Source: a virus
Strand: one strand, 5' to 3'
IMG/VR virus record: IMGVR_UViG_3300044527_000174
Location: 1-42,656 of that record
Length of the DNA: 42,656 nucleotides
Position numbers and translations under genes: made by a program. The notes beneath the pieces are model-generated. The model was not told where the DNA came from. It saw only the letters and a program-made list of their open reading frames with translations, and ran no database searches. Positions within the stretch are counted from its first letter, which is position 1; the number at the start of each line of letters is the position of its first letter. Below are positions 1 to 37,952 of the stretch, piece after piece.

Positions 1-3000
1 TAGGTTGACGCTGATTCAATGAGTGATTGGTCTGGTTAACAGCAGCAATACCAATTGCATACTTACCTGTTACAAACGCGTGACGCAATCTTGACATGAA
101 TGTTCTGTCAAGCATGTTGTCTACATTTTTATAATCAAATGACTGACCTACAGTTTTCTCAGCAATTTCTTCAGAGAGTTTCTTTAAAGACTCTGCAGAG
201 TTTGGCTTAATAAGGTTGTCATAGTTCTTAGGATGGGTGATAAGGTTTTCCATACTCTGGATGTACTCATTCTCCAAGCTCTTCTTATATAACCTGCTGA
301 TGATCTGGTCTTTAGAAGCTATACCTCTTGTGAACTCTTGTGTAAGTTCTTCCTCAGAGAACAACTTACCAAATATGGCGCTCATGAGTTTACCACCTTT
401 AGACTCCTCAGCAATGTCCTGCAATAAGAGCATTTCCTCATTGATGTATCTGTCAAGCTCTTTCATCTCTTCCTCTGTAAGGAATTCACCTTTGTCGAAG
501 AGTTCTTTGAACTTGTTGATAGCCTGCTCACCAATTCCAAAATAAGGAATCAATCTAGGCTTACCGTCTTTAACATATACGTTCTTAAGATATACTGAGA
601 GTTTATCTATGTCAAAGTCAGATCCCACCTTCTGAACCAAAGCAGCAGGAATCACCACACTGTCTCCAAATTCTTTAGGTAAGAACTTCTTAATAACAAT
701 AACGTCAACAGAGTTTTGTTTCTGTGTAGGAATACGATAGCCCACACCAGCTAAAATCTTCTGTCCTTCTTCTGTGTTGTTCAGATAGTTTAATAGTTCC
801 TCATCAGATAGAGGGCTGTCAAACCATCTACCAAGCATAACCTCAGCTACACGCTTACCATCTTTCTCATAGAACTTCAGAACGTCAGACTCATAAAGTC
901 CGTCCTTCACATTACGTACACCACTTTCTAGCATAGTAGAAGGAATCTGTACCTTCATACCACCACTAATCTTTGGAGATATGAATTGCTTATCAGCGAT
1001 GGAGTAGATGATGTTTCTCACTTGTTGGTATGCAGGAGTTGCTTCAAGCACCACCTTACCCTGTAAGAATCCAGCCAACGCATCAGAGATGTTATCATTC
1101 ACTTCTCTCTTCAAGATTTCATCACGTAGAGTTTGTGCAGCTTTAGAGAAGTCTGTGATTTCAAACTTCTTCTTACCATCCTTACCAACAGTTTCTTTGA
1201 TGCCCAGTCTGTCAAGGGTGTTCTTATACCCCTCTTCAATTAGAGCCTCAAGAATATCTTGGTTGTTCTTTATCTCTTTGTAGAGCTCAGACTTTGCAAC
1301 CTTTTCAGCATCGCTAAGTTTATACCAAGCTTTGTATCTGTTTGCAAATGGTTGACCAGGGAAGAAATCCACAGGTACACCAGCTTCCATGAAGTCAAGC
1401 GTGATGAGCTTTGTGATTTGAGATCCTCTGGTTACAAGGTTGTCTTCTTTAGAAGGCACCTCAGCTTGAATGCTCATGATAGAGAACGGAACATTGATAA
1501 CACCCTTGTAAGGGTCATTGTTGAACGCACCATCCTTGTATGTCTCATGAGGACTTTCAGCTCCCACCTTTCTACCACTTGTAAACACCACATAATCAAT
1601 GTCTTCTCTCTGCATCTTGTCATACAACTTGATAGCATTGGCATCCTTGTCTATCTCTTTCATGATACGATAGGATAAAGGATAAAGAGCGAACTTGTCT
1701 AACACCACATTATTGTATGAGCTAGCTGTACCGTTCTTTGCAAGTTTGCTACCAGACACGATTGGCTTAAGAGGAGTGTATGCACTCTGGATGCCAGGAT
1801 TACCAGCACCAAGGATAGCCACTTCTTCATTACTTAGAGGAAGATTCTTATCGTTCTTCTCCCAAGCAACATCATATCTATATTGACGCTCTTCTTCACT
1901 ATTCCAATTACCAGCTCTGATTCTGAACTGACGGTTAGCTTTCATACTAATGATACCACTACCATCAGTTTCTTTAAATGATGTATAGTTAGGAAGATCA
2001 ATTATACCAATTACATCAGCATGTGTAGCTGAACGGAAATAGTCTTGTGTAAACTTCGTAAAGCCAATATCTCCAGCGCTGAATCCTCTGTTCCAAACAT
2101 TGCTTAGAGCAGCGTTCATCTTTGGAGAGCTATTGATGATAGCCTGGCGTGGAGAGTTGAAACTCTTGATACGCTTAAGTTCATCTTCATACTGATAAGG
2201 ATCAGAATAAAGAAGCTTATGCATCTCGATGTTAGCAATCATATAGTTGGCTGTAAGGGCCATGAGTTGTCTGTCCACTTCTTTCTCACCAATGTTCTTT
2301 GGTAGATTGATGTTTTCAAAGTCAAAGCCTAACATACCTTCCTTCAGAATGCCAAACTGTGTGAGGGATTGCTTCAGCTTGATCATATCTTTTTGTATGA
2401 AGTCAGCCAGCTTACCATTTATCTTATTCTCAAATGCTTTGTACACTTCTTCAGGAGTTCCTTTAGCAGCCAATACATCTGAATGCAATGTATCACCAAG
2501 GATACCTTTGAAGAAGCGCATCTCATTAGACTTTCTACCTTTTGCTACAGGACGATTTTCTCTAACTAGTTCAAGCTCAGCTTTAAAATATTCTTTGAAG
2601 ATAGCATTGATGTCACCCATTCCTCTACTAACAGAGGCTGTAGATATAGCATTGCCCATCTTAATCATCCATTCAATAGACGCATCCCCAGGAACCAGAT
2701 TCAGGTAGTAACCTGATAGGTTTAGGTTAAGCTCTTGAACCAGACGATCTTTGTATGTAAGTTTAGAAGATTCTTTACGCTTTCCTTTCTCTTCATTTAC
2801 TAGTCCACTTACATATCCAATCTTGAATAGATCTTCTGTGTTCTCCTTACGAGTGCCAGCATCTGTAAACATTCTGCTCAACAGGTTGGAACCCTTAGCA
2901 AATGAATCTGTCAAAAGGTAACCATAACGTGTACCACCTACAGACTCTTTGTTAAATCTTTCAAGTTTAGAAAGGAATTCATATAGATCACTAGCAGCGT

Positions 3001-6000
3001 TTGTACCAATAAATGATTGTGTACGCTCACCAGATACGTTAAAATATGTGCTGCTGAACTCAGGGTTGCTTACAGCACTCTTTACAAGACCAAGCTCAAG
3101 TAAACGACCACTCATACCAAGAGCCTTTCCAGAGAAGGTAGCAACCTTTTCTGTTTTAGAAATACTTTCCTTGATACCAGCAACAGCTCCTTTGAACACT
3201 TTATATTGCTCAGGAGTCATCTTATTTACATCAGATACAGTGAATGGTATTCCCATTTTGTTTAGGAAGTCCACCATAGCTGTAACACTATTCAGGTTTA
3301 CACCTTTTAGCTTAGCAGGGTCTCCCTTGAATACCTTCTCCTTATCATCGTATGTAAAGAATCCTTTACCTTCTTTAGCCTTGAATACAATTGAGTTAAT
3401 GTATTCACTTCTAAGTTGTTGTGCAGCAGAAGCAAGGTTTGCTTCACCCACAACCACTTCTCCATTCTCAAGAACAAACACGTTTCTTACATCAGGATTC
3501 TGCTTCTTGAATGTGTTCCATATAGAACTAATAAGCTGTAAACCATGTTGTGTGTCCACCTTAGATAGGTCAACACCACCATCTTTCCAGTCTCTCTTGG
3601 TAATTCTTTTGTATAATGTTCTGTAGTTAGGATCGCTTACAGCCATCTGACGAAGTCTACCTAACATCTCTTCTACGCTAGCAGAAGTGTGTAGGTTGTT
3701 CATCATGCTGATGTATGTCTTACTTACAGGTAGTAGTTTTGCTCCACCAATAGATGAAGGAACAAGCTTACCAGCATCATCCACTTCAGGGATGGTAGCT
3801 AATAATATCTTTACAGCACTGTTAGACTTTTTGAAGTTATCTATCTTGGTAGCATCCTGATAGGTTTCTCTACCACTATTGTTCTCATCTCTGAGGTTGA
3901 TGTTATCGTTCTCATCAAACTCAATAGCATAACTCTTCAGATACTCCTCATGTCTTTCAGTGATTGTACCCCATTGATCCTCAACATTTTGCATCAATTG
4001 CAATGTGTTGGATATAAGAGGATTAACTTCCTCTTGTGTAAATGCACCCTCACTAACAAGTGATTGGGCCATACGAATCTTCTGAGAGATGGTCTCAAGC
4101 ACTTGGTCCTTCAGCTTAGCATACACTTGCTTCTTGTTTCTCTTCTCAATGTTGAACAGGCTTTCGTCTGTCTTGATTAGATCCGCTAGAGTGAGGTAGG
4201 TCATGTGCTGAATGATGTCACTTCTTTCTTTGTCATTAATGTCCTTAAGACTAAGAGCAGCATCTGAATCAGCAAATGCATCCTCGATATCAATCACACC
4301 CTCTTTAGCGAAAGCAAGACTGTTTTGGAATGGTACGTGGGATTTGTAATAGCCCTGACCAATCTTTCCAAACATCTTAGCCACCTTGGAATCAGCATTT
4401 GGTCCAATGAAGAACTCTTTAATAGCTGTCACCATATCAGCAAACAGCTTTAATATATATGGTCTGCCTTTTGTAGGCTTAGCAGGAATCTTCTTAAACT
4501 GTATGTAATCTCTGAACTCTTCAGCCAGCTTTTCTTCAAGCTGATCTTCTGTAGCTTCAGAATAACTAACGTCATTCATAGATGCTCTGTCATAGAACTT
4601 ACCGCCTCTAGATCTCATTTCATCTAATACAGCTTTCTGTTCTACAGGATCGGAGAACATTCTCCATACAGCATGGAACACCTCGTGATACACTGTACCC
4701 ACTTCAGCATTCTCATAGATGTATATTGCACCATCCTTGAACATACCCCAAGCTTGTCTACCGTTTGTAGCTTGGATGATGTTCTTCACACGATACACAG
4801 GAATGTTAGGGAAGTTAGCCTTAAGCCATGTTTCCACTTGACTCCAGTTCTCAGGAACGAATGCTTTAAGTTCTTTCTCAATCACTACACGTAGAGCCTC
4901 ATTATCTAGTCCACTAATTTTCTTGTTTACAGCATCTAGTACAGACTGACTGATAGGCTTACCCATCTTAGACTCAGCATCAGCAACCACCACTTCTTCT
5001 ACATCATCAGGAATAGTTACAGTGAGCTCAGCTTCCATAGCTCTCGTTTGATTGAGCATAGGAGCAATAGCATTTGCAAATATTGCCTTCTTTAACATTT
5101 CTCCAGGATCTTTTCCTGCAGCTTTTATCTTAGCAACCACCTCATCTAAATCACCACCTTGTACAATCTGTATTTTGGTAGTAGCGTTTTCAGATGTAGT
5201 ATCAGCAGGAGCTTTGAATATAATCTTCTTTCCTTCTGGGGAAGTGTATGTATTGGAAGTTTTACCATCCAACGTATATGTAACAGTTGGGGCTTCAGCT
5301 ACAGGAGCTGGTGCAGCAGCAGGTGTTGGAGCACCTGGTGTAAGCACCTTAGGTGTTACAGCTTTCTTCTTCTCAACTACAGGGATAACAAAGTTATCAG
5401 CTGTGTCGGTTGTAAAGAAGTAGATGTTTGTTCTGTTAATATCCTCCTCATTGGTAGTAGGTCTAACAGTAGTGGATAGAGGAAGCTCCTCACCACTTCT
5501 CACCTTACCATCAGGAGTTTGGTTAGATAACAGATATGACTGATAGTTCTTCCATGTTCTGCTGGTTATCTCACCAGATTCAGAGATGGATAAGATTTCT
5601 TCGTAAGGCTCGTTAAGTTGCTTAGCAAAGTGACTGTTGATATTGTTGTACATGTTTGATAACATGAGAACAATAGCATCTTTGTTTTCCTCTAGAGCTG
5701 TAGGTGTAAACACAAAGTCTTTACCCTTTCCAGAGAGTGTGAGCATCAACTTTCCAGTCTCACTGTCCTTCTCAAAGAACGCACTGTTATAACCTGCAGG
5801 TTTCCTTTTCTTATTTTGATCTTCAGGAATACCCCAGTATACAGTGGATTTCAACCAGTTAAGCAAACGTTCAGACTTAGCATCCTTTATACCCACTTGT
5901 GGATCAAGCATGTTCTTAGCTAGCTGAAGAATAGCTTGGTAGATAGTTTCAGCTTCTTTCTCACTATGCTGTTTGTTCTGAAGTTTAATCAGTCCATTAG

Positions 6001-9000
6001 GGGTTTCAAGGAGCACGGTTCCCACAGGAACTCTGAATGTTACAGTGCCTTGATTTTCAACAGCAATATTATTACCTTCTGTAGGAAGGGTTGGTATCTT
6101 AATTAACTGTGTAGATTCTAACTCATCAGTAGTGATGAGGTTAGCATCTTGTGCAGATGTTCTAGTGTCATAGATAATCTTACCATCAGCGTCTGTCACA
6201 TTCTCAACTCTTCCAAAGGAAGCTTCAATCTCATGACGCTCTGATAGGTCTGGGTTCTCAAGAACTGAGGTGCGCCACTCTTTGTATTGTTTTGTAACAG
6301 CATCTTTAACTTCCTGAGGAGTGTCCTTACGGAACATGCTTTCGTTGTTAAACTCAGCACCCCATGTTAAATTAGCATCAGGGAACACTTGGAATATGGC
6401 AGACTCTAAAGCATTAGCTCCATCAGGAATAGGTTGTCCATCCACTCCTACAAGTTGAATGTTACCATCCTCATCCTCCTGAACCATAACAAGAGCGATG
6501 ATTTCATCCTTGTTGATGTCCTCATCAATCTGTCCAGCCTCATCCATTCTCAACATGTCTGTGATACCAGGAATCAGTTGGTCCTCATTCTTAGATGTAA
6601 CATATACACCACGAATGTTCTTTCTATTAGCAAACCTGTTTAGGTTAAATCCAAAGGTGTTAGCTCGTATTTGATGAGGCTTACCTCTTACAATACCCAT
6701 TGTAGCCCTAGGAATAATCTCATCAGACTTCTTAGCTGTAGGTTCGTATTCTTTACTAAACTCTGCTGTTTGAACACCTGATTCAGCTGTGCCAAGAGCT
6801 TCAGCCAACAGTTGCTCGTTCTCCATCATCTTAGTTTCTTCAGCCTTCCTAGCTTGGTAGGCATCAGCTACAGATTGAAATCTGTCTAAGATTTGCTTCT
6901 TTACATTATGTTCAGCACCAAGTTCATTAAGTTTTTCGTAGAGTTTAGTCACCTCATCTTCAGCCTCTTGTAACTGGTTCTCATTTACAGAAATTTCTTT
7001 CTGTAAATCTTGTAACATAGCGTAGTCTGCAAGATATTCTTTAATACTTTTAGCTTCAGAGAATAGAGGTTCTTCCTTCATTCTCTCAAAACTATTTCTC
7101 AAGTAGTCAGGATAATCTTCATCAAACTTCTGCATTGAGGATTGTAATAATTTTACAAAGTCCTTAATTGCTGAATTGATTGACTTAGCTATATCAAAGA
7201 GAGTGTTAATTTCACTTCCTGTTTCTTTAACCAACTCTTCAAGCCAACCAACTTGTTCTTTAAGTTCCTTAAGAAACTCACCACTATTTTCTGGAAGTTC
7301 ATCAAGGTTTTGAGCAAAGTCTGAGAAGTATGCTAAGTTAAACTCTAATTCATTTTTTTCAGTGGTAAGCTTTTCTATCTCATTCTCAACATCATTCTTC
7401 ATGTTAGAAAGCTTAGATATAGCCTTACTGGTTGATGACAACACTTTACCAAATCTAACCTTCTGACGACTTAATTCAGGATACTTTGCTTCAAGAGACT
7501 TCTCTCTTTTAGTACGTGGTTCAGCCACCTTTACCTCATCACCAATTTTAGCTAGGTCTTTCTGAATGTTTTCAAGCTGTTCTTTCTTAGCTTCAAGCTT
7601 TTTACTTACTTCCTCAAGACGCTCGTTAGCTTCGGTCTCAAGTTGTGCTATGATTTCAAGACGTGCATCTCTATTCTTAGCCAATGTTTCTTTCTGATTA
7701 GCAATCTCTTCAGGAGATGTAAACTCTTCTCTAGAAACCTTTTGCTCTTCGTTTTCTACCTCACCAACCTTTTTAATACGAGCCTGTGTGTATCCTTCCT
7801 GAGCAACAAAGTATTCATTCTTCAGTGCCTTTCTTCTAATCTTACCCTTATCATCTTTGTATACAAAGAAGAGCTTACCCTTCTCGTATTCAAGTCTTCC
7901 TGTTTTTTTACCACCAAACTTCTCTCCAAAGTTGTATTCAAAGATTTCGTTTCTGTGGTTGTAGAAATATTTAGCTGTTTTATTAGCACGAAGATCTGCC
8001 ACCTTTCCAAGCTTATAATCTTCAAGCACTTCCTTAGAGACATCTCTAATCTGTCCCTTGTTATCTTTTATCTTGATGGTACCATCTTCATTCTCACCAA
8101 GGATGGTAAGTGCAGCAACTTCTACAGGAACCTCTAAACCATCTTTATCATAGTCCACTCCTTTACCAACAAAGTATTCTGTACCCACCTCTAATTCTTT
8201 CTCACCAGTTTTGGTTTTCACCTTGATGGTTTCTCCTTTAGGGGCTTCAGTTTCTTCTGTGTCAGTAGGGGTAAACTCTTGGAACTTAACAGGTTCTTTC
8301 TTTATCTCATTGTACTCTTTTAGATAGTTGTCTCTACGAACAGCCATTTCAGCTACATCCTCTAGAGCTTGACCAAGGTCTTCTTTTTGATCATCGGTGA
8401 GATCTTTCATACCCTTGATGTTGTCAATAGCATCATTGAAACTATCTACATTGCCATCAATAATATCTCTCATCACCTGGTCTACATTAATACCAGCAGC
8501 TGAAAGCTCAGGAGTGAGAGCAGGGATACGTACATCATAGTCAGCCACTTTAGAAGCAGCATATATCATTTTGTCTATTACAGCTGATGTATATAATGGA
8601 TTACCATTATCATCAACCTGTCCTCCATAACGTAAGTTAAGAGATTGGTAGAGAGATAAAGTGTTATTAGCTGTCTGTTCAAGCTTAGTGAGACGATCTA
8701 AGAATGCCTCTCTTGTATCTGTAGGAAGAGCTTTACCCTCAGCAACAAGCTGAGCAAAACCTTCTTCTGTACTAGCTAGCGCTCTGTTATCTCTGATTTC
8801 TGCTTCTACAAGATCAAACCTACCATACTTAATACGAGGAGACAGATAGTTGATTACAAAGTCTGCCTCTCTATCTTTACTATTCAGAACATCACCTTTC
8901 TTCAAGAACCCTTCTCTTTCCTGTTGTAGCACAGTGCCACGGTTTACAGAATCAATTGTGTCCTTTGTAAAGTCTGATAGTCTATACTTATTGAACTTTT

Positions 9001-10486
9001 GGATAGCGTCTGCTGTGTTTCTAGACTTAGACATGTCCTCTCTAAATCTACCTCTACCTTGCATGATAGCTCCAGACAATCCACCAATCAACACGTTCTC
9101 CATACCTTCGTCTGTACCAAAGGTTTGTATAAATCCTTCTGATAAACTTTCAAGGAAGCTGGTAGGTTCGTTGTTGTTCTTCTTGTTGTAATAGTTTTCT
9201 ACACCTTTACCAATAGCAAACTGAGCACCTTCTTCAAATGCTTCAGATGTAGAGAATGTATATGGTCTGATTTTATCAAGCGTGCCAAGAATCTTACCAG
9301 CACGTGAAGGCTTAGCTATATACTTACCACCATCTTCAATGATGTTCTTTGTTTCTCTTGTAAGTTCATTTAATACAGACTTCTCTCCTCTATATGTAGA
9401 ACCAAGTATTCTTGGGAACTGGATGTAGTTAGTAGCTGTAAGTAAACCAACGTTCAATAAGAAAGCAGAGTTGCCCACTTCTGAAGCCTTTGCATTGATG
9501 TCTTCCATTGCTTGAGCATCAGGATATACACCATCATTTGCAGCTACATATTCTTGAATCAGTTCATTTCTCTTTTCATTAAGAGTTTGCAATGCTTCAA
9601 ATCCAGCCTCACCTGTTGTAGAGAGACCAGCAACAACAGCTCTTCCTCCTTTGTTTAGTACATTGTAGGATGTGATAAATCTATCAGATAGAGATTTCAC
9701 TTTACCAAATGTATCAGCCACCTTATTAACAGATGTAAGTCCTGCTTCTGTAGCAGCTAACACCTCAGCTTGTTTACCAACAGATACAAGGCGAGAGATA
9801 CCAGGAAGTGCGCTAAGTGCTTTAATGCCAGCACTGTATACACCTCCTGTAAGAGCTGCACCAGCAGCAAAGCCAAGGTTCTTTACAATACCATTCCAAG
9901 CAAAGTTGGCTGTAAAGAGATTATCAGGAGAATACCATTTAGCTTCCTTCTCAACATCTGTGTAGTAGTTAGGAAGTAGGTTATCGTCCAGTTGCTTATT
10001 TAAATTATCTAATCCTCTATTGAGGTCATTATCATAGAACGAAGAGAAGTTACCTGTAGCTATCCAGTTACCAACACCGTTAACAAGACCTAATGTGCCT
10101 TGTAAAAAGGTTGTACCTGTAAGAGCCAATCCTTTACCCACACCATTCACCATCTTCTCAGTCCAGCTTTGTCCCTGAGCATATGCATCCTCATTATTGT
10201 AATCACCAGGTACAAATACATTGTATCTAGGATTAGTGAGTTCTGACATAGCACGGGGAATAGAACCACCCTGTAGTCCTTTGTTAGATGATCTAACAGA
10301 AGCATCCAGTGCCTGAAGAGCAGACACAGGTTCATCACCTCCAACGCCTGGGGTGCTAAGTCCTCTAAACGGTATATTAGGAAGAGGCTCTGGAATGCCA
10401 GCAGGTGTATATCCACCATACTGTTGTTCTAGAGCCATTCTATCAAGCAGAGGTACTTGAGGGGGATTCACTGGGGTTTCTGCCAT
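1..10486 (-). CDS. Giant virion RNA polymerase polyprotein with zincin motif (3' end outside window)
   Basis: The reading frame stays open from ATG at 10486 to the left edge, giving at least 3495 residues with no stop. Seen by residue: Gly/Ala-rich hydrophobic stretches near 112-145 and 199-224; a charged coiled-coil block about 930-1230; a Pro/Ala linker about 1714-1735; HEVFH at 1934-1938 (bases 4673-4687), a zincin metallopeptidase signature; and DFDID at 3290-3294 (bases 605-619) in context KVGSDFDIDKLSVY. In the crAss-like family DFDID is the DxDxD metal-binding motif of a packaged RNA polymerase that transcribes early genes after injection. The hydrophobic N-terminus could help cross the envelope, and the zincin could cut the chain or host peptidoglycan; both are inferences. 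The start overlaps the upstream stop as TAATG. If the tail after DFDID matches that of Cellulophaga phage phi14:2 gp66, several hundred residues lie outside the window. The polymerase call is strong; the roles of the other regions are uncertain. Confidence 0.9.
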   Translation of the reverse strand, partial: MAETPVNPPQVPLLDRMALEQQYGGYTPAGIPEPLPNIPFRGLSTPGVGGDEPVSALQALDASVRSSNKGLQGGSIPRAMSELTNPRYNVFVPGDYNNEDAYAQGQSWTEKMVNGVGKGLALTGTTFLQGTLGLVNGVGNWIATGNFSSFYDNDLNRGLDNLNKQLDDNLLPNYYTDVEKEAKWYSPDNLFTANFAWNGIVKNLGFAAGAALTGGVYSAGIKALSALPGISRLVSVGKQAEVLAATEAGLTSVNKVADTFGKVKSLSDRFITSYNVLNKGGRAVVAGLSTTGEAGFEALQTLNEKRNELIQEYVAANDGVYPDAQAMEDINAKASEVGNSAFLLNVGLLTATNYIQFPRILGSTYRGEKSVLNELTRETKNIIEDGGKYIAKPSRAGKILGTLDKIRPYTFSTSEAFEEGAQFAIGKGVENYYNKKNNNEPTSFLESLSEGFIQTFGTDEGMENVLIGGLSGAIMQGRGRFREDMSKSRNTADAIQKFNKYRLSDFTKDTIDSVNRGTVLQQEREGFLKKGDVLNSKDREADFVINYLSPRIKYGRFDLVEAEIRDNRALASTEEGFAQLVAEGKALPTDTREAFLDRLTKLEQTANNTLSLYQSLNLRYGGQVDDNGNPLYTSAVIDKMIYAASKVADYDVRIPALTPELSAAGINVDQVMRDIIDGNVDSFNDAIDNIKGMKDLTDDQKEDLGQALEDVAEMAVRRDNYLKEYNEIKKEPVKFQEFTPTDTEETEAPKGETIKVKTKTGEKELEVGTEYFVGKGVDYDKDGLEVPVEVAALTILGENEDGTIKIKDNKGQIRDVSKEVLEDYKLGKVADLRANKTAKYFYNHRNEIFEYNFGEKFGGKKTGRLEYEKGKLFFVYKDDKGKIRRKALKNEYFVAQEGYTQARIKKVGEVENEEQKVSREEFTSPEEIANQKETLAKNRDARLEIIAQLETEANERLEEVSKKLEAKKEQLENIQKDLAKIGDEVKVAEPRTKREKSLEAKYPELSRQKVRFGKVLSSTSKAISKLSNMKNDVENEIEKLTTEKNELEFNLAYFSDFAQNLDELPENSGEFLKELKEQVGWLEELVKETGSEINTLFDIAKSINSAIKDFVKLLQSSMQKFDEDYPDYLRNSFERMKEEPLFSEAKSIKEYLADYAMLQDLQKEISVNENQLQEAEDEVTKLYEKLNELGAEHNVKKQILDRFQSVADAYQARKAEETKMMENEQLLAEALGTAESGVQTAEFSKEYEPTAKKSDEIIPRATMGIVRGKPHQIRANTFGFNLNRFANRKNIRGVYVTSKNEDQLIPGITDMLRMDEAGQIDEDINKDEIIALVMVQEDEDGNIQLVGVDGQPIPDGANALESAIFQVFPDANLTWGAEFNNESMFRKDTPQEVKDAVTKQYKEWRTSVLENPDLSERHEIEASFGRVENVTDADGKIIYDTRTSAQDANLITTDELESTQLIKIPTLPTEGNNIAVENQGTVTFRVPVGTVLLETPNGLIKLQNKQHSEKEAETIYQAILQLAKNMLDPQVGIKDAKSERLLNWLKSTVYWGIPEDQNKKRKPAGYNSAFFEKDSETGKLMLTLSGKGKDFVFTPTALEENKDAIVLMLSNMYNNINSHFAKQLNEPYEEILSISESGEITSRTWKNYQSYLLSNQTPDGKVRSGEELPLSTTVRPTTNEEDINRTNIYFFTTDTADNFVIPVVEKKKAVTPKVLTPGAPTPAAAPAPVAEAPTVTYTLDGKTSNTYTSPEGKKIIFKAPADTTSENATTKIQIVQGGDLDEVVAKIKAAGKDPGEMLKKAIFANAIAPMLNQTRAMEAELTVTIPDDVEEVVVADAESKMGKPISQSVLDAVNKKISGLDNEALRVVIEKELKAFVPENWSQVETWLKANFPNIPVYRVKNIIQATNGRQAWGMFKDGAIYIYENAEVGTVYHEVFHAVWRMFSDPVEQKAVLDEMRSRGGKFYDRASMNDVSYSEATEDQLEEKLAEEFRDYIQFKKIPAKPTKGRPYILKLFADMVTAIKEFFIGPNADSKVAKMFGKIGQGYYKSHVPFQNSLAFAKEGVIDIEDAFADSDAALSLKDINDKERSDIIQHMTYLTLADLIKTDESLFNIEKRNKKQVYAKLKDQVLETISQKIRMAQSLVSEGAFTQEEVNPLISNTLQLMQNVEDQWGTITERHEEYLKSYAIEFDENDNINLRDENNSGRETYQDATKIDNFKKSNSAVKILLATIPEVDDAGKLVPSSIGGAKLLPVSKTYISMMNNLHTSASVEEMLGRLRQMAVSDPNYRTLYKRITKRDWKDGGVDLSKVDTQHGLQLISSIWNTFKKQNPDVRNVFVLENGEVVVGEANLASAAQQLRSEYINSIVFKAKEGKGFFTYDDKEKVFKGDPAKLKGVNLNSVTAMVDFLNKMGIPFTVSDVNKMTPEQYKVFKGAVAGIKESISKTEKVATFSGKALGMSGRLLELGLVKSAVSNPEFSSTYFNVSGERTQSFIGTNAASDLYEFLSKLERFNKESVGGTRYGYLLTDSFAKGSNLLSRMFTDAGTRKENTEDLFKIGYVSGLVNEEKGKRKESSKLTYKDRLVQELNLNLSGYYLNLVPGDASIEWMIKMGNAISTASVSRGMGDINAIFKEYFKAELELVRENRPVAKGRKSNEMRFFKGILGDTLHSDVLAAKGTPEEVYKAFENKINGKLADFIQKDMIKLKQSLTQFGILKEGMLGFDFENINLPKNIGEKEVDRQLMALTANYMIANIEMHKLLYSDPYQYEDELKRIKSFNSPRQAIINSSPKMNAALSNVWNRGFSAGDIGFTKFTQDYFRSATHADVIGIIDLPNYTSFKETDGSGIISMKANRQFRIRAGNWNSEEERQYRYDVAWEKNDKNLPLSNEEVAILGAGNPGIQSAYTPLKPIVSGSKLAKNGTASSYNNVVLDKFALYPLSYRIMKEIDKDANAIKLYDKMQREDIDYVVFTSGRKVGAESPHETYKDGAFNNDPYKGVINVPFSIMSIQAEVPSKEDNLVTRGSQITKLITLDFMEAGVPVDFFPGQPFANRYKAWYKLSDAEKVAKSELYKEIKNNQDILEALIEEGYKNTLDRLGIKETVGKDGKKKFEITDFSKAAQTLRDEILKREVNDNISDALAGFLQGKVVLEATPAYQQVRNIIYSIADKQFISPKISGGMKVQIPSTMLESGVRNVKDGLYESDVLKFYEKDGKRVAEVMLGRWFDSPLSDEELLNYLNNTEEGQKILAGVGYRIPTQKQNSVDVIVIKKFLPKEFGDSVVIPAALVQKVGSDFDIDKLSVYLKNVYVKDGKPRLIPYFGIGEQAINKFKELFDKGEFLTEEEMKELDRYINEEMLLLQDIAEESKGGKLMSAIFGKLFSEEELTQEFTRGIASKDQIISRLYKKSLENEYIQSMENLITHPKNYDNLIKPNSAESLKKLSEEIAEKTVGQSFDYKNVDNMLDRTFMSRLRHAFVTGKYAIGIAAVNQTNHSLNQRQP

Positions 10487-13092
10487 TAGAAAGGATTTTT
10501 AGAAGCTTTTTGTAATCTTTGTAAGTCGGTTTTAGTTGCAGACTTCTCATTAATTATTTCATAAACAGATGCATCCGTTAGTCCCTGCATAAGAGGAACC
10601 ACCTCAGCTTCAGTAAGCATTCTTGGATAAGGAATGTCTTGTTGTAGTGATTTTGTAATAGGGTCGTAGATATTCAATCTTAATGAATATGTTCTACCAC
10701 CATCTCCAGAAACAATATTTCCACTTACGCCAAAAGACTTTACGTTAAAAAAGTCTGTAGGACCAAGTGCTGAGTTGTTTATATTTGTTTGACCTCCTTC
10801 AGGACTAGTTGAGAGATAAGGGCTTTCTGCTGAGCTAAACTTTCTCATCATACTTTGATATGGACGGAAAGCTTGTACAGCTGGAGAAGCTTCAAATCTA
10901 TCTCCGAATATTGCATTCTTTTGTTCAGGAGTTATTCTGAATGTGGTACTACCAGCAGCTCCTCTTGCTGTCACTTCGTACATAGCAGGAGAAAACTCTG
11001 TGCCTTCTACTATCTTCAATGTACCCTGAGGATTACCTGACTCAGCAATTTTTCTTAACAGTGGTACATTTAAATTAGGAGAGTTAGCTATTCCACCTTT
11101 TTGTTGCTCAGCAAGATTTGCCACTGATGCAAATGTACTAGCAAGACTCTCTTGTTGTACCTTAGTAGTTGTAGGAATATTATAGTCTACTCCTTGGAAA
11201 CCAGTCACTCTTCTCTTCACCTCATTACCTACCCAATCTTGTTTTTGATTTAGAGTTTGTTGGTAAGGTAAGTTTATAGCCTTACGATAATTTTCTAAGT
11301 TCTGTGCAAGAACTTGGTCAGCTCTATTTAAATTTGACTCACCTCTATAGTATCTTTCTTTGTGAAGTTGATAAAGCTTATAGTCTTTTGGAGACAACTC
11401 TGCTTTAGCTTTCTCATCATTATATGCAACTGTTGTTGTTCCACCAGTCCCTGTTGTAGGACTACCAGGAGTAGTACTTACTGTTCTATAGTTATTTATC
11501 TTACTGTTGAAATCTACAAAGTCTCTTGGAGTGTATGTTGTTTTACTTCCATCAGAAGCAGTGTAGGTGAGGTTGGGAGCATTCTTTGGAATGTTCTTAT
11601 AAACATCTCCATAAATTCTATCAGCCTCAGCATTGATTTGACCCACCATTATCTGGTTCTCCATTGCAACTCTTCTTGTTCCTTCTGTTTGATTGAAGTG
11701 TTGAGCAACCATTGGGTCCACTCCATTAGGAGATTTTAACCATGCAATTCTTTGCTGGTCAAGCCATGCTTTATCTTTCCCTTGTGATTTTACAAAAGCA
11801 GAGTCTTGTTGATTAATTGCATCTAAGTTAGCTTGTGTTTGTGCCACAACTTTATCAAGAGCAACATTAGGTACATCCTTAGGGTCAACAGGAGCTGGAA
11901 AACCACCATACCCTGTTTGTGCTAGTTTCTCCAATCTAATCTTCTCATCCTCTCGACTCATTGTGTCTTTATGGAATCTCTCTCTTTGTGAATATTCCAT
12001 TGTAAACTTCTTCCACTCTTGAGCCTTATTCTCTCTCCACTGTTGAGCTTGAGCAAATGGACTAGTTTCGTAAGTCTGAGCAGTTTCTGTGTATGAGAAA
12101 GCTTTGGAAAAACCATTCATGAAGTTAGCTGTGAACAATCTTGCTTTTGCAGATTCAGCATCTCCATCATCAAAGGTTTTTGAAACACTGTTGTATTCTT
12201 CCTGAACACTGTTTAATATCTTAGTAAGTTCTCCAATCTTTTGGTCAATCTTTTGCTTTTCTACAGCAGAAGATGTAGAAGATTTTGCATTCTCAAGAAT
12301 GGTTCTTTGCTGAGCAAAGGCATCATACTTCCCCTTATAAGAAGCATTTAATGATTCTGCGAAAGACTGAGGAGTAGTGTTGGCATAGTTGTATCTACCA
12401 TCCACTGATATTTGTTCCCAGTCATCAGGAGAAAGTCCTGTTAAAAGAGCTTGTTGAATCTTCTCTGGAGAAATACCCGCAAGCTTTGTACGGGTCATTG
12501 CATCCTTGATTACAAGATTACCCTTAGCATCAACGTCAAAAGCATCATCTCTGATGGTACTATCTCCAGTGAGTCCTTTGATTATCTCTGTAGCGTTCTT
12601 TCTGTAGTTGGTGTAAGGTTTGTATAATGTATTAAAGGAAGAATCAACATCCCCATTAAGCCAAGCATTGGCTGCATTTTTAAATTCCCAAGTTCTAGAA
12701 GCAGAAGCTTTTCCTTCTTTGGTAAGAGTAGCTATATCCTCTAGCCCCTTTCTATAGGCTTTTGTAGAAGACAAAGCATTAACAATACGAGGGTCTTTCA
12801 CAATCTGACCAGTCATACCTCCTACAGAGTTGACAAGTTGGAAGTTGGAGAAATCACCAGCAGCTACGTTTTTAAGGTTGTTTCCAAGTTCGTTCAGCTT
12901 AGATTGCAAATATACTCGTTGAGCATCTTGAGCTATGTCTAGCCCAGCAATATTATCTATCTGAGTTTGAATCTTTTGGATACCCTCATCGTAGCGCTTC
13001 TGTTTCTCCATACCCACCTGCACCATAGCTTCCACAGGAAGCTGTTGGACATAGGGGTTAAATTGTGGTATGATGTCTGTAAATGAAGCCAT
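10486..13092 (-). CDS. Probable internal virion (cargo/ejection) protein, 868 aa
   Basis: This mostly helical, polar protein has no signal peptide or membrane segment. The N-terminus reads MASFTDIIPQFNPYVQQLP followed by a heptad-like region (EKQKRYDEGIQKIQTQIDNI) near residues 29-48. A Thr/Gly linker lies around residues 541-564, and the C-terminus ends in a basic helix. I know of no enzymatic motif in it. Its place directly before the polymerase giant, with a TAATG overlap, suggests a protein packaged and delivered with the polymerase, as crAss-like cargo proteins are. That role is inferred from position and size. A good Bacteroidota-type promoter lies just before the start, so this gene and the polymerase probably form their own transcript. 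Confidence 0.75.
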   Translation of the reverse strand: MASFTDIIPQFNPYVQQLPVEAMVQVGMEKQKRYDEGIQKIQTQIDNIAGLDIAQDAQRVYLQSKLNELGNNLKNVAAGDFSNFQLVNSVGGMTGQIVKDPRIVNALSSTKAYRKGLEDIATLTKEGKASASRTWEFKNAANAWLNGDVDSSFNTLYKPYTNYRKNATEIIKGLTGDSTIRDDAFDVDAKGNLVIKDAMTRTKLAGISPEKIQQALLTGLSPDDWEQISVDGRYNYANTTPQSFAESLNASYKGKYDAFAQQRTILENAKSSTSSAVEKQKIDQKIGELTKILNSVQEEYNSVSKTFDDGDAESAKARLFTANFMNGFSKAFSYTETAQTYETSPFAQAQQWRENKAQEWKKFTMEYSQRERFHKDTMSREDEKIRLEKLAQTGYGGFPAPVDPKDVPNVALDKVVAQTQANLDAINQQDSAFVKSQGKDKAWLDQQRIAWLKSPNGVDPMVAQHFNQTEGTRRVAMENQIMVGQINAEADRIYGDVYKNIPKNAPNLTYTASDGSKTTYTPRDFVDFNSKINNYRTVSTTPGSPTTGTGGTTTVAYNDEKAKAELSPKDYKLYQLHKERYYRGESNLNRADQVLAQNLENYRKAINLPYQQTLNQKQDWVGNEVKRRVTGFQGVDYNIPTTTKVQQESLASTFASVANLAEQQKGGIANSPNLNVPLLRKIAESGNPQGTLKIVEGTEFSPAMYEVTARGAAGSTTFRITPEQKNAIFGDRFEASPAVQAFRPYQSMMRKFSSAESPYLSTSPEGGQTNINNSALGPTDFFNVKSFGVSGNIVSGDGGRTYSLRLNIYDPITKSLQQDIPYPRMLTEAEVVPLMQGLTDASVYEIINEKSATKTDLQRLQKASKNPF

Positions 13093-13179: not shown

Positions 13180-16100
13180 TTAGATATTTTTTAAAGCCTT
13201 TACAATTGAGCTGTTCAGGTTCTTTTTCTTAATAGAAGTTCCTTTCCTTGCCCCCTCTATTTCCTCCTTGTTACTCTTCTTCAGAAAGGTCTGAGGAGTG
13301 CCAGGAGTAGTGGCAGGGCTAGATACAACAGCTGTAGATTGATCTCCAACCTTTTGTTCGTAGTAAAGGATATTTCCGTTCTGGTCTAATACAGGAACTC
13401 TCTGTGAGCTGGTTCCAGCTATTGTAGGAATCACTGGCTGAAAAGGAGCATTCATGTTCATAGCTCTGAAACGTGGGTCAAAGCGGTAGTTGTACAGGTT
13501 CTCCATTGTAGCTAATGTTCTGTTTTCCAATTGATTCTTAGCCATTTTGTCAGAAATAGAATTAACAACAGCCTGTCCAACAGCCTTTGTTTTACTCTTA
13601 GCTTCAGCCTGACGAACATACTGACGGTCAAGAATCTCAAGATTCTTCAGGCCAAACTGATCAAGCTTATCTCTATTCTCTTTGTAAATCTGATTCTTCA
13701 TGGCCTGGTTCATACGGAATTGCTCACCTAACACTTTCTGATTAGCAGCATATTCTTGTGCCCCAAGTTGACTTTGTAAAGCAGGATTGTATCCCACAAG
13801 CCTTTGTTGTGATCTCAAGGAAGCCCTGTTCTCATTCAGAATGTCCTGAAGAGAGATGTCATAAGGAACGCTAAGTTGAGGCTGTATAAGTTGTGCTTGT
13901 ACGGGCTCTAATTGGTTAGTAGCCATTGCGTACATCTCACCCATAAGCTGTGTAGGGTCAAGTTGTTCTTGGTCTGTAGGACGAACGTAAGGAAGCACCT
14001 GTCCAATAACATCCACTAAACCACTTCTCTTGTATTCAATAGAAGGAACATCTTTTTTAGGTGGAGCACCAACCTCAGGAATGATAGGTCTGAACTCTCT
14101 TGTTTGGAATGTAGAAGGAGTTTCAGGAATGTCTTTCTTCTTCAATCCAGGAGCAGCCCATCCAGCACCAAGTTTATTATCAAACCAGTTCTTCTTAGTA
14201 GATGTAGGATCTGAGTTATATAGTTGTTGGTGGTTGTTGATAATCATTGACTTTAGTTCAGGATCTTGGAACAGAAACTCTTGGAAAGCTTTGTTTCCTT
14301 TCTTACCTGTTTTATCAAATCCAATCTGCTCAGCAATCTCATCCCACTCTTTTGCAGTGAACGCAGATGCATTCTTGATACCTGTGCTCTTATCTCCAGT
14401 CCAAGGATCAAGTCCATATTTACTTGTATATCCAGATTGTGCTTTAATCATCTTACCAAATTTAGCAGTTTTTATTTTTCCTTTAGCAAGATCATCAGCA
14501 ACCAATCCATACTCCTCAGCTGTATCATTAATAGCGTTCTGTAGAGAAGCAGCTGAAGTTTTGTTGTCAGCAATTTCTTTTAATGTAGCACTACCACCAT
14601 TGATTGTAAGATCTAAAGAGTTGAATCTCAACTTATCAAAAGGAGTTTGTACATCAAGCTCATCAAGTTCTTCTACAGCTTTGCTAATGTTCTTATTGAT
14701 TTTATTTTCCTTTTTAGACAAATCAGCTACGTAGGTTTTGAACTTCTTACCTTCAGCTTCCTTACCAAGTAATGGAACATAAGCTTTAGGTATCTTGAGG
14801 TTGCCAAACACTACAAGGCTACTGTCACCAGGAGCACCTCCACCATCTTTTAACTTCAATGCTGGTTCACCTCTTTCCACTTCTACAGGGTTGTTACCAT
14901 AGGTGATACCTATACCTGTGTTGCCCTTACCATCACTCTCATCATGAGACTGACCTCTGAACATGATTGTTTCTCCACCATCTGGTAGGTATGGATTCTG
15001 AGACATAGACTCAGCATATCCACCCCAGTGTGTTTGAAGCTCACCACCCATCTGGAAGTCAGGTCTTTCTGTAGACATAGCTCTTTCACTAGGAGGAGTG
15101 TATTCTTTTAGGTGACCGCCAGCTCTGAGCATATCAGCATCCTTTGGAGGTCTAAGAAGGTCTTTCACTTTGTGTTCTCCAAAGGTAGCAATCACCTGAG
15201 GTTGCCATGTATGGCTCACCCATTCGTATGGAGACGTTGTTCCACCATTCTCCATGAATGATGACTGTTGTGCCTGACCACCTTGTATACCCTGTTGAAG
15301 AGCAGTGGATTGTATATTTCTTTGTGTAGCTTCTTTTGCTTTCTTAATCTTTTGAGGTTTTCTATTAATAGCAGTACCAATCAATTGACCAGCTGTTTGA
15401 CCAATCAATTTACCAGCAGGACCAAATGCTGATCCTATAGTGCCACCAATTGTACCACCTAGATTACCACCAGCGTTCTCACCAGTGATGCTTGTAAGAA
15501 GTTGTCCTGTAGCTTGTGTGCCACCAGAAGAAGCAAATGTTTCTAAACCACTCTGAGCTTTATGCATCTTGCCACCATGCATGAACTGCTTGTAGCGCTC
15601 ACTATCATTCAAAGGCTCATATCCAAGATCATCGTAAAGTGTATTAGGAGCAAACGTATTAGCAATCTCACCAGGGATTCCACCTACCATTTTACCATTC
15701 CTAGCAAGTACATTTGTACCTACACCATATATGGGGAAGAACTCTTCTCCTGTATTTGTAATATCCTCAGGACGAACATATCTACGTTGGGTTTCTTCAG
15801 GACGTGTACTAGCAGCTTGTTTAACAAGTGCACTTACATCTTCAGCTTGCTCAGCTCTTTCAAGAGCTCTCTTTTCTTCTTTAAGTTGTTGTATTCCTTC
15901 TACAATCTTACCAGCAGGACCTGCATACTTACCAACAGCTTTCATGAATTTATCTCCTTGTTTCTCTTCCACCTCAACAGGATTAGCAACACTAGCAGGA
16001 GCTGTGGATATAGTACCAGACGAAGGAGCTGACATACCTACATATGTCTGACCATTACGCCAAAGATCATGATCTGACTTCCAAGACTGATAGTCAGGAT

Positions 16101-16557
16101 AGTCTGATTGTTGAGGTTCAGGTTGAGCTTGAGTTCCTCCTTGCGCTTTCTTTATCTTCTTTCCTTTTCTAGCAAGGGCAGAAGTCATGTCAGCCATACC
16201 TTCTTCACCACCCATAGTTTGAAACACCTTTCCAAGATTACCAAGAGATGCACCTATTCCTCCTCCATCACCACCACCACCTTGTTGTTGGGCAGCAGCA
16301 AGCTCAGCTTGTTTATAGGCTTCTTCTTTACGTTGGTCCTGTGTAGAACCTGTTACTGTATAATCAGCTTCGTCATATAAATCTTTAAAGCTAATGGGTT
16401 GAAAACCAGCGCCTTGTTCTCCTCCAATATAAGCACCTATTTGTGCTTTCTTAAAGGCGCCACCATGTTTAGCCATAAAAGATGCCTCATCAGGAAACTT
16501 CTTGTAGAAATCCTTCTCAGACTTAACGCCAGCAATTTTGAGCATTTTTGCTTTCAT
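13180..16557 (-). CDS. Large Gly/Gln-rich internal virion protein, 1125 aa
   Basis: I do not recognise an enzyme here. Seen in the sequence: a glycine run near residues 93-100; a Gly/Ala/Leu/Ile segment at about 363-397 (GGTIGGTIGSAFGPAGKLIG) resembling a glycine zipper that could insert in a membrane; and four copies of KAQxG at 37-41, 137-141, 333-337 and 705-709, each after basic or hydrophobic residues. Many double glycines follow a Q, D or M, and the C-terminus is basic. Together with size and the position between tail and polymerase genes, this suits an ejected internal protein whose precursor may be cut at recurring sites; both points are inferred. The start follows the upstream TGA after one base, so translation is probably coupled. 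Confidence 0.7.
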   Translation of the reverse strand: MKAKMLKIAGVKSEKDFYKKFPDEASFMAKHGGAFKKAQIGAYIGGEQGAGFQPISFKDLYDEADYTVTGSTQDQRKEEAYKQAELAAAQQQGGGGDGGGIGASLGNLGKVFQTMGGEEGMADMTSALARKGKKIKKAQGGTQAQPEPQQSDYPDYQSWKSDHDLWRNGQTYVGMSAPSSGTISTAPASVANPVEVEEKQGDKFMKAVGKYAGPAGKIVEGIQQLKEEKRALERAEQAEDVSALVKQAASTRPEETQRRYVRPEDITNTGEEFFPIYGVGTNVLARNGKMVGGIPGEIANTFAPNTLYDDLGYEPLNDSERYKQFMHGGKMHKAQSGLETFASSGGTQATGQLLTSITGENAGGNLGGTIGGTIGSAFGPAGKLIGQTAGQLIGTAINRKPQKIKKAKEATQRNIQSTALQQGIQGGQAQQSSFMENGGTTSPYEWVSHTWQPQVIATFGEHKVKDLLRPPKDADMLRAGGHLKEYTPPSERAMSTERPDFQMGGELQTHWGGYAESMSQNPYLPDGGETIMFRGQSHDESDGKGNTGIGITYGNNPVEVERGEPALKLKDGGGAPGDSSLVVFGNLKIPKAYVPLLGKEAEGKKFKTYVADLSKKENKINKNISKAVEELDELDVQTPFDKLRFNSLDLTINGGSATLKEIADNKTSAASLQNAINDTAEEYGLVADDLAKGKIKTAKFGKMIKAQSGYTSKYGLDPWTGDKSTGIKNASAFTAKEWDEIAEQIGFDKTGKKGNKAFQEFLFQDPELKSMIINNHQQLYNSDPTSTKKNWFDNKLGAGWAAPGLKKKDIPETPSTFQTREFRPIIPEVGAPPKKDVPSIEYKRSGLVDVIGQVLPYVRPTDQEQLDPTQLMGEMYAMATNQLEPVQAQLIQPQLSVPYDISLQDILNENRASLRSQQRLVGYNPALQSQLGAQEYAANQKVLGEQFRMNQAMKNQIYKENRDKLDQFGLKNLEILDRQYVRQAEAKSKTKAVGQAVVNSISDKMAKNQLENRTLATMENLYNYRFDPRFRAMNMNAPFQPVIPTIAGTSSQRVPVLDQNGNILYYEQKVGDQSTAVVSSPATTPGTPQTFLKKSNKEEIEGARKGTSIKKKNLNSSIVKALKNI

Positions 16558-37421: not shown

Positions 37422-37952
37422 CTAATCAAGTTTGTTTATCACCGTGTCATTTATTATCCTGTATGAACGGATTGGAGCTATGTCAGTGAGTGTAACCTGT
37501 TGAATCTCAACGCCCCACTTCTTTGCCTCCACTCTAGCTTTCTTCGTGAGGATGTTATCAATCTCAGCGTCTATGCACTCCTCTAAGGTTTTGCCCATGA
37601 TGATGTTCTTGATAATGTATTGTGTCATATCTGATATAGCATCCTCAGCATCATACACTTCTAACATGAATGTCTGAATATCAGCTATTTTGTATTTGAT
37701 TAACCCCTTCACAACAATGTTCTGTTTGTCTTTAGTGTAAAGACTCTGTGGGGGTAGGCTCAGAGTTGTAACTACAACATGCTGTTCCATGGGATCATCC
37801 ACAAATGGGATGCGCCAGTGGAAACCAGGTTTAACCACCTTGTGGAATTTACCAAAGCGTAGAACAACTGCTTCCTCAAAATCTCTAACGATAAAGAAGG
37901 GGAGCAGTTGTTCAAACCAGCCTGTGATTAGGTCAATGAGCCTATCAAACAT
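37422..37952 (-). CDS. SPFH/Band-7 domain protein, 176 aa
   Basis: The sequence is that of a single SPFH (stomatin/prohibitin/HflK) domain: an amphipathic hydrophobic N-terminus (FDRLIDLITGWFEQLLPFF) that could lie on a membrane, then VVLRFGKFHKVVKPGFHWRIPF, TLSLPPQSLYTKDKQNI, IKYKI and a helix with GKTLEECIDAEIDNILTKKA ending in GVEIQQVTLTDIAP. SPFH proteins form rings or cages on membranes and often regulate proteases. No long C-terminal coiled coil is present. Its start overlaps the portal stop as TAATG and it ends in TAG before the scaffold promoter. A role in membrane or capsid assembly, or in protecting the infected cell, is open. The domain call is strong; the function is not. Confidence 0.85.
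   Translation of the reverse strand: MFDRLIDLITGWFEQLLPFFIVRDFEEAVVLRFGKFHKVVKPGFHWRIPFVDDPMEQHVVVTTLSLPPQSLYTKDKQNIVVKGLIKYKIADIQTFMLEVYDAEDAISDMTQYIIKNIIMGKTLEECIDAEIDNILTKKARVEAKKWGVEIQQVTLTDIAPIRSYRIINDTVINKLD

What the first reader, a model, noticed from the sequence alone, without database searches (positions are those of the whole stretch)
605..10486. Zincin motif and crAss-type RNA polymerase motif on one polypeptide of over 3495 residues
HEVFH (residues 1934-1938) and DFDID (3290-3294) lie in one open frame, with a Pro/Ala linker (about 1714-1735) before the zincin region. crAss-like phages are known for giant packaged RNA polymerases, and in phi14:2 the polymerase alone is far shorter than this chain. 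Here hydrophobic, coiled-coil, protease-like and polymerase regions are fused. A self-cleaving polyprotein, in which the zincin frees the polymerase during assembly or ejection, is a testable idea.
Basis: partly seen in the sequence, partly recalled or inferred. Interest (0 to 1): 0.7.

Follow-up and report, generated by a model that had tools for sequence, protein, structure and literature searches.

The report
Crass-phage polymerase fused to protease-like domain
A virus of the crAss-like group carries one giant protein in which a virus RNA polymerase is joined to a protease-like domain; joins of this kind have been seen before, but in most of the relatives examined one key residue of the protease-like part has been exchanged, which speaks against the idea that its general task is to cut the polymerase free.

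Summary
In detail: one minus-strand frame (window 2-10486, at least 3495 residues, cut by the contig end) holds HEVFH and DFDID where stated. The polymerase part matches the solved phi14:2 virion RNA polymerase by sequence profile; the HEVFH part is homologous to the C-terminal end of crAss001 gp47 and models as zincin-like. The chain is a gp47-type cargo protein fused to the catalytic polymerase (crAss001 gp50-type). The same zincin and polymerase share one ORF, in the same order, in annotated gut crassviruses, and phage N4 also has a polymerase and a HExxH domain on one chain, so the architecture is not new. Self-cleavage as a general mechanism is not supported: three unfused phages keep the zincin on a separate protein, the joint shows no HExxH-specific site, and 54 of 77 distinct zincin regions have HExxE instead of HExxH, although every complete gene is a fusion. 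That state changed at least ten times on the polymerase tree, coupled to an acidic/lysine change beside the presumed third ligand, while the other presumed active-site residues stay invariant. This switch is the most unusual result. Whether HExxE is active is open.

The parts
2..10486 (-). giant ORF, >=3495 residues, C-terminus cut by the contig end
   Evidence: complete in L004 (4175 aa)
8207..10486 (-). residues 1-760 (modelled part), mostly helical N-terminal cargo region, homologous to crAss001 gp47 N-terminus, phi17:2 gp039 and Leptolyngbya phage XAI97382
   Evidence: profile of residues 1-900: E 4.5e-58 (crAss001 gp47), 4.1e-61 (phi17:2); 5.9e-58 (Lbo-JY46); model mean pLDDT 60.5, almost only helices
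5327..7786 (-). residues 901-1720, charged region, coiled-coil-like by eye (not computed)
   Evidence: no reference protein matched below E 0.26:
5282..5347 (-). residues 1714-1735, Pro/Ala-rich linker, in a region of variable length
   Evidence: region 1690-1866 is 148 to 662 aa in 45 sequences
5027..5281 (-). residues 1736-1820 (about), small alpha/beta domain before the zincin
   Evidence: pLDDT 82-90 per ten residues in the model:
4364..4849 (-). residues 1880-2041, zincin-like domain
   Evidence: crAss001 gp47 C-terminus E 1.3e-14, 8.9e-14; fold rows
4673..4687 (-). HEVFH (1934-1938); last position is H in 23, E in 54 of 77 distinct sequences
4532..4537 (-). E1984 (switches with 1938: acidic or K/R) and E1985 (invariant, presumed third metal ligand)
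4157..4363 (-). residues 2042-2110, start of the fusion joint between gp47-type and polymerase parts
   Evidence: read by eye: no site tied to HExxH
2..4156 (-). RNA polymerase part, residues 2111-3495 (incomplete)
   Evidence: 6vr4 E 3.5e-24; residues 2700-3495: phi14:2 g066 E 5.7e-28, crAss001 gp50 E 6.2e-20; residues 2100-2700 weak: crAss001 gp50 E 7e-5
605..619 (-). DFDID catalytic motif (3290-3294)
   Evidence: present in the giant ORFs that are complete at both ends; aligned with DFDID of 6vr4
10486..13092 (-). 868-aa upstream ORF, by position a cargo protein; shares one base with the giant ORF
   Evidence: position only, no family match
13180..16557 (-). 1125-aa ORF, by position a cargo protein
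   Evidence: position only (one unnamed PHROG at E 0.00038)

Best explanation
The ORF is a fusion of two virion cargo proteins of crAss-like phages: a gp47-type protein (helical N-terminus, charged middle, linker, C-terminal zincin-like domain) and the catalytic virion RNA polymerase (gp50/g066 type). It most likely travels as one chain in the capsid and is ejected with the DNA, as N4 vRNAP does: the helical front part stays with the ejection apparatus or inner membrane (inferred), the polymerase refolds inside and transcribes early genes (known for phi14:2, inferred here), and the zincin-like domain acts after delivery on a host or phage protein, or as a regulatory or structural domain (inferred). 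It is not a device whose general task is to cut the polymerase free. The rivals on effector and pseudo-protease roles are sub-cases that this statement does not exclude, so the odds do not add to one.
For: Fusion parts by profile: residues 1-900 to gp47, zincin to gp47 C-terminus, 2700-3495 to g066/gp50; the next ORF to gp49 (profile of 28 downstream ORFs, E 2.1e-14). Crassvirus hallmarks in the window. Annotated single ORFs with this zincin and DFDxD in the same order: cr1_1 (4551 aa), cr50_1 (4774 aa), cr4_1 (4491 codons, 38 in-frame stops under table 11). 62 of 62 ORFs complete at both ends among 77 distinct sequences, the window included, carry both parts. Zincin on a protein separate from the polymerase in crAss001, cr85_1, Dulem virus 41. 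HExxE in 54 of 77. At equal polymerase distance the zincin core is no more divergent in HExxE than in HExxH pairs: median distance ratio 0.97 (1273 pairs) and 1.00 (187 pairs), mixed pairs 1.03 (1020); pairs are not independent, and pairs under 0.05 polymerase distance were dropped. gp47, gp49 and gp50 are in crAss001 virions (PMC10172136, passages). N4 vRNAP: membrane-associating N-terminus, polymerase and C1 domain with HExxH on one chain; no degradation of the recombinant full-length protein seen (PMC12633501, abstract and passages).
Against: No proteomics was seen for any member of this clade; cleavage by the zincin or by another protease is not excluded. HExxE can belong to an active enzyme: CLCA proteins are described with a HEXXE motif and self-cleavage (PMC6851300, passages). 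A zincin between a front part and the polymerase is where a releasing protease would sit. The membrane role of the N-terminus is by analogy; no strong hydrophobic segment was found. [quoted passage not shown]
Confidence: 0.65

Rival explanations
1. Self-cleaving polyprotein: the zincin cuts the chain during assembly or after ejection and frees the polymerase (the first reader's idea; also proposed in print for zincins of phage polyvalent proteins in general).
For: Intact HExxH plus third-ligand Glu in the window and a zincin-like model; position between front part and polymerase; the authors of PMC5512222 propose autoprocessing by such domains and cite P1 DdrB as cleaved (passages).
Against: Zincin kept where there is no fusion; 54 of 77 zincins of the clade are HExxE; joint equally conserved in both types without a type-specific site, by eye; N4 vRNAP is stated to be packaged unprocessed (PMC5512222, passages).
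Confidence: 0.15
2. The zincin-like domain is a delivered effector that cuts a host (or competing phage) protein; fusion to the polymerase only co-delivers it.
For: Same domain at the end of an unfused virion cargo protein in crAss001; in phi14:2 g067 the C-terminal end looks GNAT-like (weak, Pfam E 0.025, below cut-off), and Leptolyngbya phage XAI97381 has a GNAT domain (E 3.6e-8) and two other HExxH motifs, as if enzyme modules were exchanged.
Against: No target known; the domain is as conserved as the polymerase, less expected of an arms-race effector.
Confidence: 0.35
3. HExxE forms are metal-free pseudo-proteases in which E1938 is held by K1984 and often K1942; the domain is a structural or regulatory part of the polymerase in all members, as the N4 C-terminal domain (which includes a HExxH subdomain) inhibits its polymerase.
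For: Coupled switch: H1938 with acidic 1984 in 21 of 23, E1938 with K or R in 54 of 54, moving together on the tree; 1942 is R/Q/N/T in HExxH and K (52) or D (2) in HExxE; autoinhibition in N4 (PMC12633501, abstract and section heading).
Against: H1934, E1935, E1985, A1988 and E1989 are invariant in all 54 HExxE members (33 of these, aligned, were found with probes outside the motif) and there is no faster change, unusual for a lost active site.
Confidence: 0.35

Closest known systems
Cellulophaga phage phi14:2 virion RNA polymerase g066/gp66 (PDB 6vr4)
   Same: polymerase part: profile E 3.5e-24 over 536 positions, DFDID and surroundings aligned
   Different: stands alone at 2180 aa; no match to this zincin in g066 or the neighbouring g067
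crAss001 gp47, gp50 and gp49 (Steigviridae)
   Same: gp47 = N-terminal part and zincin (HEAFH 2157), gp50 = polymerase, gp49 = next gene
   Different: three separate genes; gp47 on one strand, gp49 and gp50 on the other
Giant ORFs of Suoliviridae (cr1_1 YP_010110695, cr50_1 YP_010110216, cr4_1 YP_010112556)
   Same: one ORF with HEAFH zincin and DFDxD in the same order, about 4500-4800 codons
   Different: the profile of residues 1-900 does not match these ORFs; all three HExxH; cr4_1 has in-frame stops under table 11
N4 virion RNA polymerase (gp50, 3500 aa)
   Same: membrane-associating front, polymerase and a HExxH domain on one ejected chain
   Different: T7-type polymerase, HExxH domain after the polymerase; no significant sequence link to this zincin (hhalign probability 1.6%, E 0.032, single N4 sequence)
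CLCA proteins with a HEXXE motif
   Same: HEXXE described as part of a zinc metalloprotease domain, with self-cleavage (PMC6851300, passages)
   Different: animal proteins; no homology tested

Membership tests
crAss-like virion RNA polymerase | sequence relation to the solved phi14:2 enzyme with the DFDxD motif aligned | tested here: met
   6vr4_A E 3.5e-24, DFDID aligned; giant ORFs complete at both ends hold DFD.D. (The 45 aligned were chosen by DFD.D, so their agreement is partly by choice.)
crAss-like virion RNA polymerase | two double-psi barrels in one chain | not tested
   this region was not modelled; inferred from homology to 6vr4
crAss-like virion RNA polymerase | carried in the virion and injected | not testable with these tools
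   reported for phi14:2 and crAss001 (PMC7886860 and PMC10172136, passages)
Crassvirales-like phage | crassvirus major capsid, muzzle and ring proteins | tested here: met
   Crass_capsid E 9.5e-27, crAss_MUZ E 2.9e-37, CrAss_Ring_1 E 6e-10
zincin metallopeptidase | HExxH plus a downstream third-ligand Glu | tested here: met
   window HEVFH 1934-1938; E1985 invariant in 77 of 77, third-ligand role inferred; 54 of 77 relatives are HExxE
zincin metallopeptidase | zincin fold | tested here: inconclusive
   model pLDDT 64, expected order of elements; of the top 11 rows (Z 7.1 to 5.3) seven align to catalytic domains of lethal factor or PPEP-1 and four to N-terminal domains of lethal factor or Certhrax; Z under 8; Foldseek alone nothing under E 0.001
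zincin metallopeptidase | bound metal and peptidase activity | not testable with these tools
   needs protein
self-cleaving polyprotein | standard protease motif kept wherever the fusion exists | tested here: not met
   54 of 77 HExxE with all 62 complete genes fused; reservation: HExxE may be active
self-cleaving polyprotein | conserved cut site at the joint, specific to HExxH members | tested here: inconclusive
   none seen, but the alignment was only read by eye
self-cleaving polyprotein | cleavage products | not testable with these tools
   no proteomics
polyvalent proteins (PMC5512222) | several unrelated enzyme domains on one injected polypeptide, often with a zincin | tested here: met
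   polymerase plus zincin-like domain on one frame; injection inferred
polyvalent proteins (PMC5512222) | match to a curated metallopeptidase family model | tested here: inconclusive
   no metallopeptidase model in the window's own tables at E <= 1 and E <= 0.1; among the other members one weak Peptidase_M9_N match, E 0.021

The most novel reading that the evidence does not exclude
The zincin domain of this clade toggles between two working metal sites, HExxH with an acidic residue at 1984 and HExxE with Lys at 1984, at least ten times on the polymerase tree, inside a polymerase-fused cargo protein: a naturally repeated exchange of a metal ligand in an enzyme class usually taken to need two histidines.
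Probability: 0.3. Interest if true: 0.65.

Novelty: new variant of a known kind. Interest (0 to 1): 0.45.

Why it matters
It shows that, in this crass-like lineage, the polymerase and the zincin-bearing cargo protein of crAss001 are one chain, as zincin and polymerase are in some gut crassviruses and, in another domain order and with another polymerase, in N4. Unrelated phage groups thus join an ejected polymerase and a HExxH domain. The repeated HExxH/HExxE exchange gives a natural series of paired domains on which metal binding, peptidase activity and any cleavage can be tested directly.

Tried and rejected
Pfam on the whole ORF gave only matches below their cut-offs, and phmmer against the PDB gave one chance-level match (E 0.76); profiles were needed. 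PHROGs gave one unnamed family for the N-terminus (E 2e-26) and one weak match. Foldseek on the zincin model gave no match under E 0.001; the VIA second look gave the rows described. The N-terminal model gave only mixed helical matches, Z 7.0 or less. Pfam on nine long linker regions gave no match above a cut-off. A scan of one genome for each of 84,980 species gave one 3.7-kb contig in a Tissierellales bin (44%), too short to name a host. A crAss001 gp47 zincin query in IMG/VR found only a contig of crAss001's own length at 100%. The hhalign comparison with the N4 zincin was not significant.

I considered that the HExxH/HExxE alternation might be one old split: rejected, because the careful polymerase tree needs 12 changes, at least 10 on well-supported branches, 11-12 in bootstrap trees; the earlier quick trees gave 10 with 6 or 7 forced. 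Exchange of whole zincin domains by recombination is not excluded: the quick zincin-only tree (columns 1938, 1942, 1984 left out) needs 9 changes but its well-supported branches force only 2, and its two independent pairs are too few for a test.

Selection and dropped rows. 143 matching ORFs were reduced to 77 distinct ones, the window included. The polymerase tree uses 71 of 77 (six lack 600 residues of that region). One search kept 80 of 141 confirmed relatives, and one of its three probes contained YHEVF (not the variable last position), so invariance of H1934 and E1935 is free of that bias only for the 45 sequences (12 HExxH, 33 HExxE), found with other probes. Those 45 were themselves chosen by holding DFD.D. 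Alignments A1, A2 and A3 used 42, 36 and 41 of the 45. One of 77 rows (L053, same contig as L114) has a polymerase-region ORF without the N-terminal part, cut at its 3' end; not examined. Three HExxH rows break the coupling or weaken it (L089 Asp, L096 Lys, L116 Asn at 1984).

Literature: searches for crAss-like with zincin, or with RNA polymerase and metalloprotease, returned no paper; Crassvirales with RNA polymerase and protease gave four, three listed (listing only); HEXXE with metalloprotease gave four, none on phages by title. PMC5512222 and PMC12633501 do not contain 'crAss'. Yutin 2018 and Drobysheva 2021 are not held, so they may describe this zincin.

Full report
What is there. The frame is on the minus strand, window 2..10486, at least 3495 residues, running off the contig. 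HEVFH and DFDID are at the stated residues. The window is a crass-like phage: crassvirus major capsid, muzzle and ring proteins and a P22-type portal, and a large terminase whose best annotated match is Leptolyngbya phage Lbo-JY46 at 39%. The 44 full-length relatives aligned with the window (chosen by size and by holding DFD.D) are 3735 to 4821 residues long, and all 45 read DFDID.

What the parts are. Profiles from these 45 sequences were run against proteins of annotated phages. The first 900 residues match crAss001 gp47 (E 4.5e-58), its relatives, phi17:2 gp039 (E 4.1e-61) and a Leptolyngbya phage protein (E 5.9e-58). The zincin region (1736-2110) matches the C-terminal part of crAss001 gp47 (HEAFH at 2157, E 1.3e-14), of cr85_1 gp056 and of a Dulem virus 41 protein. 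The part from 2700 matches phi14:2 g066 (E 5.7e-28) and crAss001 gp50 (E 6.2e-20); against the PDB the only match at E up to 1 is 6vr4, E 3.5e-24, with DFDID aligned. Residues 2100-2700 match gp50-type proteins only weakly (best E 7e-5; 2.2e-9 to cr50_1). A profile of the ORF after the giant gene (28 relatives) matches crAss001 gp49 (E 2.1e-14). So the giant gene is gp47-type plus gp50-type, followed by gp49-type. In phi14:2 the corresponding genes g067 and g066 share one base, so a fusion needs little.

The zincin. An AlphaFold model of 385 residues, from 42 sequences of both types, has mean pLDDT 64; the order is helix, four strands, HExxH helix, helix, two strands, helix with the invariant E1985-x-x-A1988-E1989. 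In the VIA second look the top eleven rows are all from lethal factor, Certhrax or PPEP-1 (best Z 7.1, rmsd 3.3 over 130 residues): seven align to catalytic domains (lethal factor C-terminal part, PPEP-1), four to N-terminal domains of lethal factor or Certhrax, which from memory share the fold without the metal site; a mixed tail starts at Z 4.3. Z is under 8, Foldseek alone found nothing under E 0.001, and no metallopeptidase model reached its cut-off, so the fold is likely, not proven.

HExxH against HExxE. Of 77 distinct zincin regions 23 have HExxH and 54 HExxE; in the 45 sequences found with probes outside the motif it is 12 and 33. Residue 1984, just before the presumed third ligand, is K in 53 and R in 1 of the 54 HExxE forms, and E in 20 and D, K and N in one each of the 23 HExxH forms. 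H1934, E1935, E1985, A1988 and E1989 are invariant in both. On a careful tree of the polymerase region (71 of 77 rows) the state changes 12 times, at least 10 on well-supported branches; over ten independent pairs residue 1984 (acidic or not) moves the same way in 8.5 on average, does not differ in 1.5 and never moves the other way (median sign-test p 0.008). On the zincin-only quick tree 9 changes are needed but only 2 are forced by well-supported branches, so exchange of domains by recombination is possible. Outside this clade the forms seen are HExxH: 16 of 16 pattern-bearing loci (of 21 examined), and 7 of 7 annotated phages in which the profile found the domain, of 12 crass-like or Cellulophaga/Leptolyngbya phages searched. 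HExxE forms are not more divergent than HExxH forms at equal polymerase distance. Invariant catalytic residues and undiminished conservation argue for a working domain; the charge-matched Lys argues for a salt bridge. CLCA proteins are described with a HEXXE motif and self-cleavage (PMC6851300, passages). I leave both readings open.

Self-cleavage. The domain sits on a protein separate from the polymerase in crAss001, cr85_1 and Dulem virus 41, so its conserved role is unlikely to depend on freeing the polymerase. The joint after the zincin (2042-2200) is conserved in both types and shows no site tied to HExxH (read by eye). N4 vRNAP, which also has a HExxH domain, is stated to be packaged unprocessed (PMC5512222, passages), and the recombinant full-length protein showed no degradation (PMC12633501, passages).

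How it probably works. Shown: fusion parts, conservation, the coupled switch. Inferred: packaging and ejection as one chain, a front part that stays with the ejection apparatus, a polymerase that transcribes early genes, and a zincin-like domain that acts after delivery or regulates the chain. gp45, gp46, gp47, gp49 and gp50 were detected in crAss001 virions and are thought to pass the tail partly unfolded (PMC10172136, passages).

Novelty. Giant crassvirus polymerase genes are known, up to about 6000 residues (PMC10136315, passages), and large multidomain transcription genes are described (PMC7886860, passages; words beginning with protease or peptidase do not occur in that main text). ORFs with this zincin and the polymerase in the same order are present in annotated cr1_1, cr50_1 and cr4_1, named hypothetical protein, DNA helicase and hypothetical protein in their records. 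I found no paper naming the zincin in crass-like phages, but two key papers were not readable. The new element is the repeated HExxH/HExxE exchange.

Noticed in passing
window 37422-37952 (-): An SPFH/Band 7 (stomatin/prohibitin-type) gene (Pfam E 7e-27) lies inside the structural block beside the portal gene.
   Followed up: no
L176 (Leptolyngbya phage Lbo-JY46): A cyanobacterial phage is the best annotated match by terminase (39%) and the only annotated match of the capsid protein (25%). Its homologue of the N-terminal part has neither HExxH nor DFDxD; the next gene (2748 aa) has a GNAT domain (E 3.6e-8) and two other HExxH motifs.
   Followed up: partly
L064:7160-12553 (phi14:2 g067), C-terminus: Where relatives carry the zincin, g067 ends in a GNAT-like stretch (Pfam E 0.025, below cut-off), as if enzyme modules were exchanged at this place.
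   Followed up: partly
L064 g065 residue 245; L151 gp077 residue 517; L154 gp27 residue 342; L150 gp32 residue 1814; L068:19716-27731 residue 2426; L017 downstream ORF residue 207: What looks by eye like a second HExxH type in crassvirus cargo proteins; in L151 it matches Pfam ATLF at E 8.7e-5, below its cut-off.
   Followed up: partly
L152:12510-21413 and 21704-24100 (cr108_1): The zincin-plus-polymerase ORF ends at polymerase profile position 592 and the next ORF takes up at 593, near the place of the DFDxD motif, with 290 bases between; possibly an intervening sequence or a break at the motif.
   Followed up: no
L012:5954-7102: The linker region of this relative carries an insert containing GIGSRETP, which resembles DprA/SLOG-type domains from memory; Pfam gave no match.
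   Followed up: partly
window 19070-25054 (-) and several small structural ORFs: Long Thr/Ser-rich runs in the muzzle-type protein and neighbours; the Val-rich plus-strand ORF 19587-20048 is probably their antisense shadow.
   Followed up: no
L053 (same contig as L114): The giant gene may be interrupted: the polymerase-region ORF starts at 8783 without the N-terminal part.
   Followed up: no
L177: A 3.7-kb contig binned with a Tissierellales MAG encodes a 44% relative of the zincin region; perhaps a stray viral contig.
   Followed up: no
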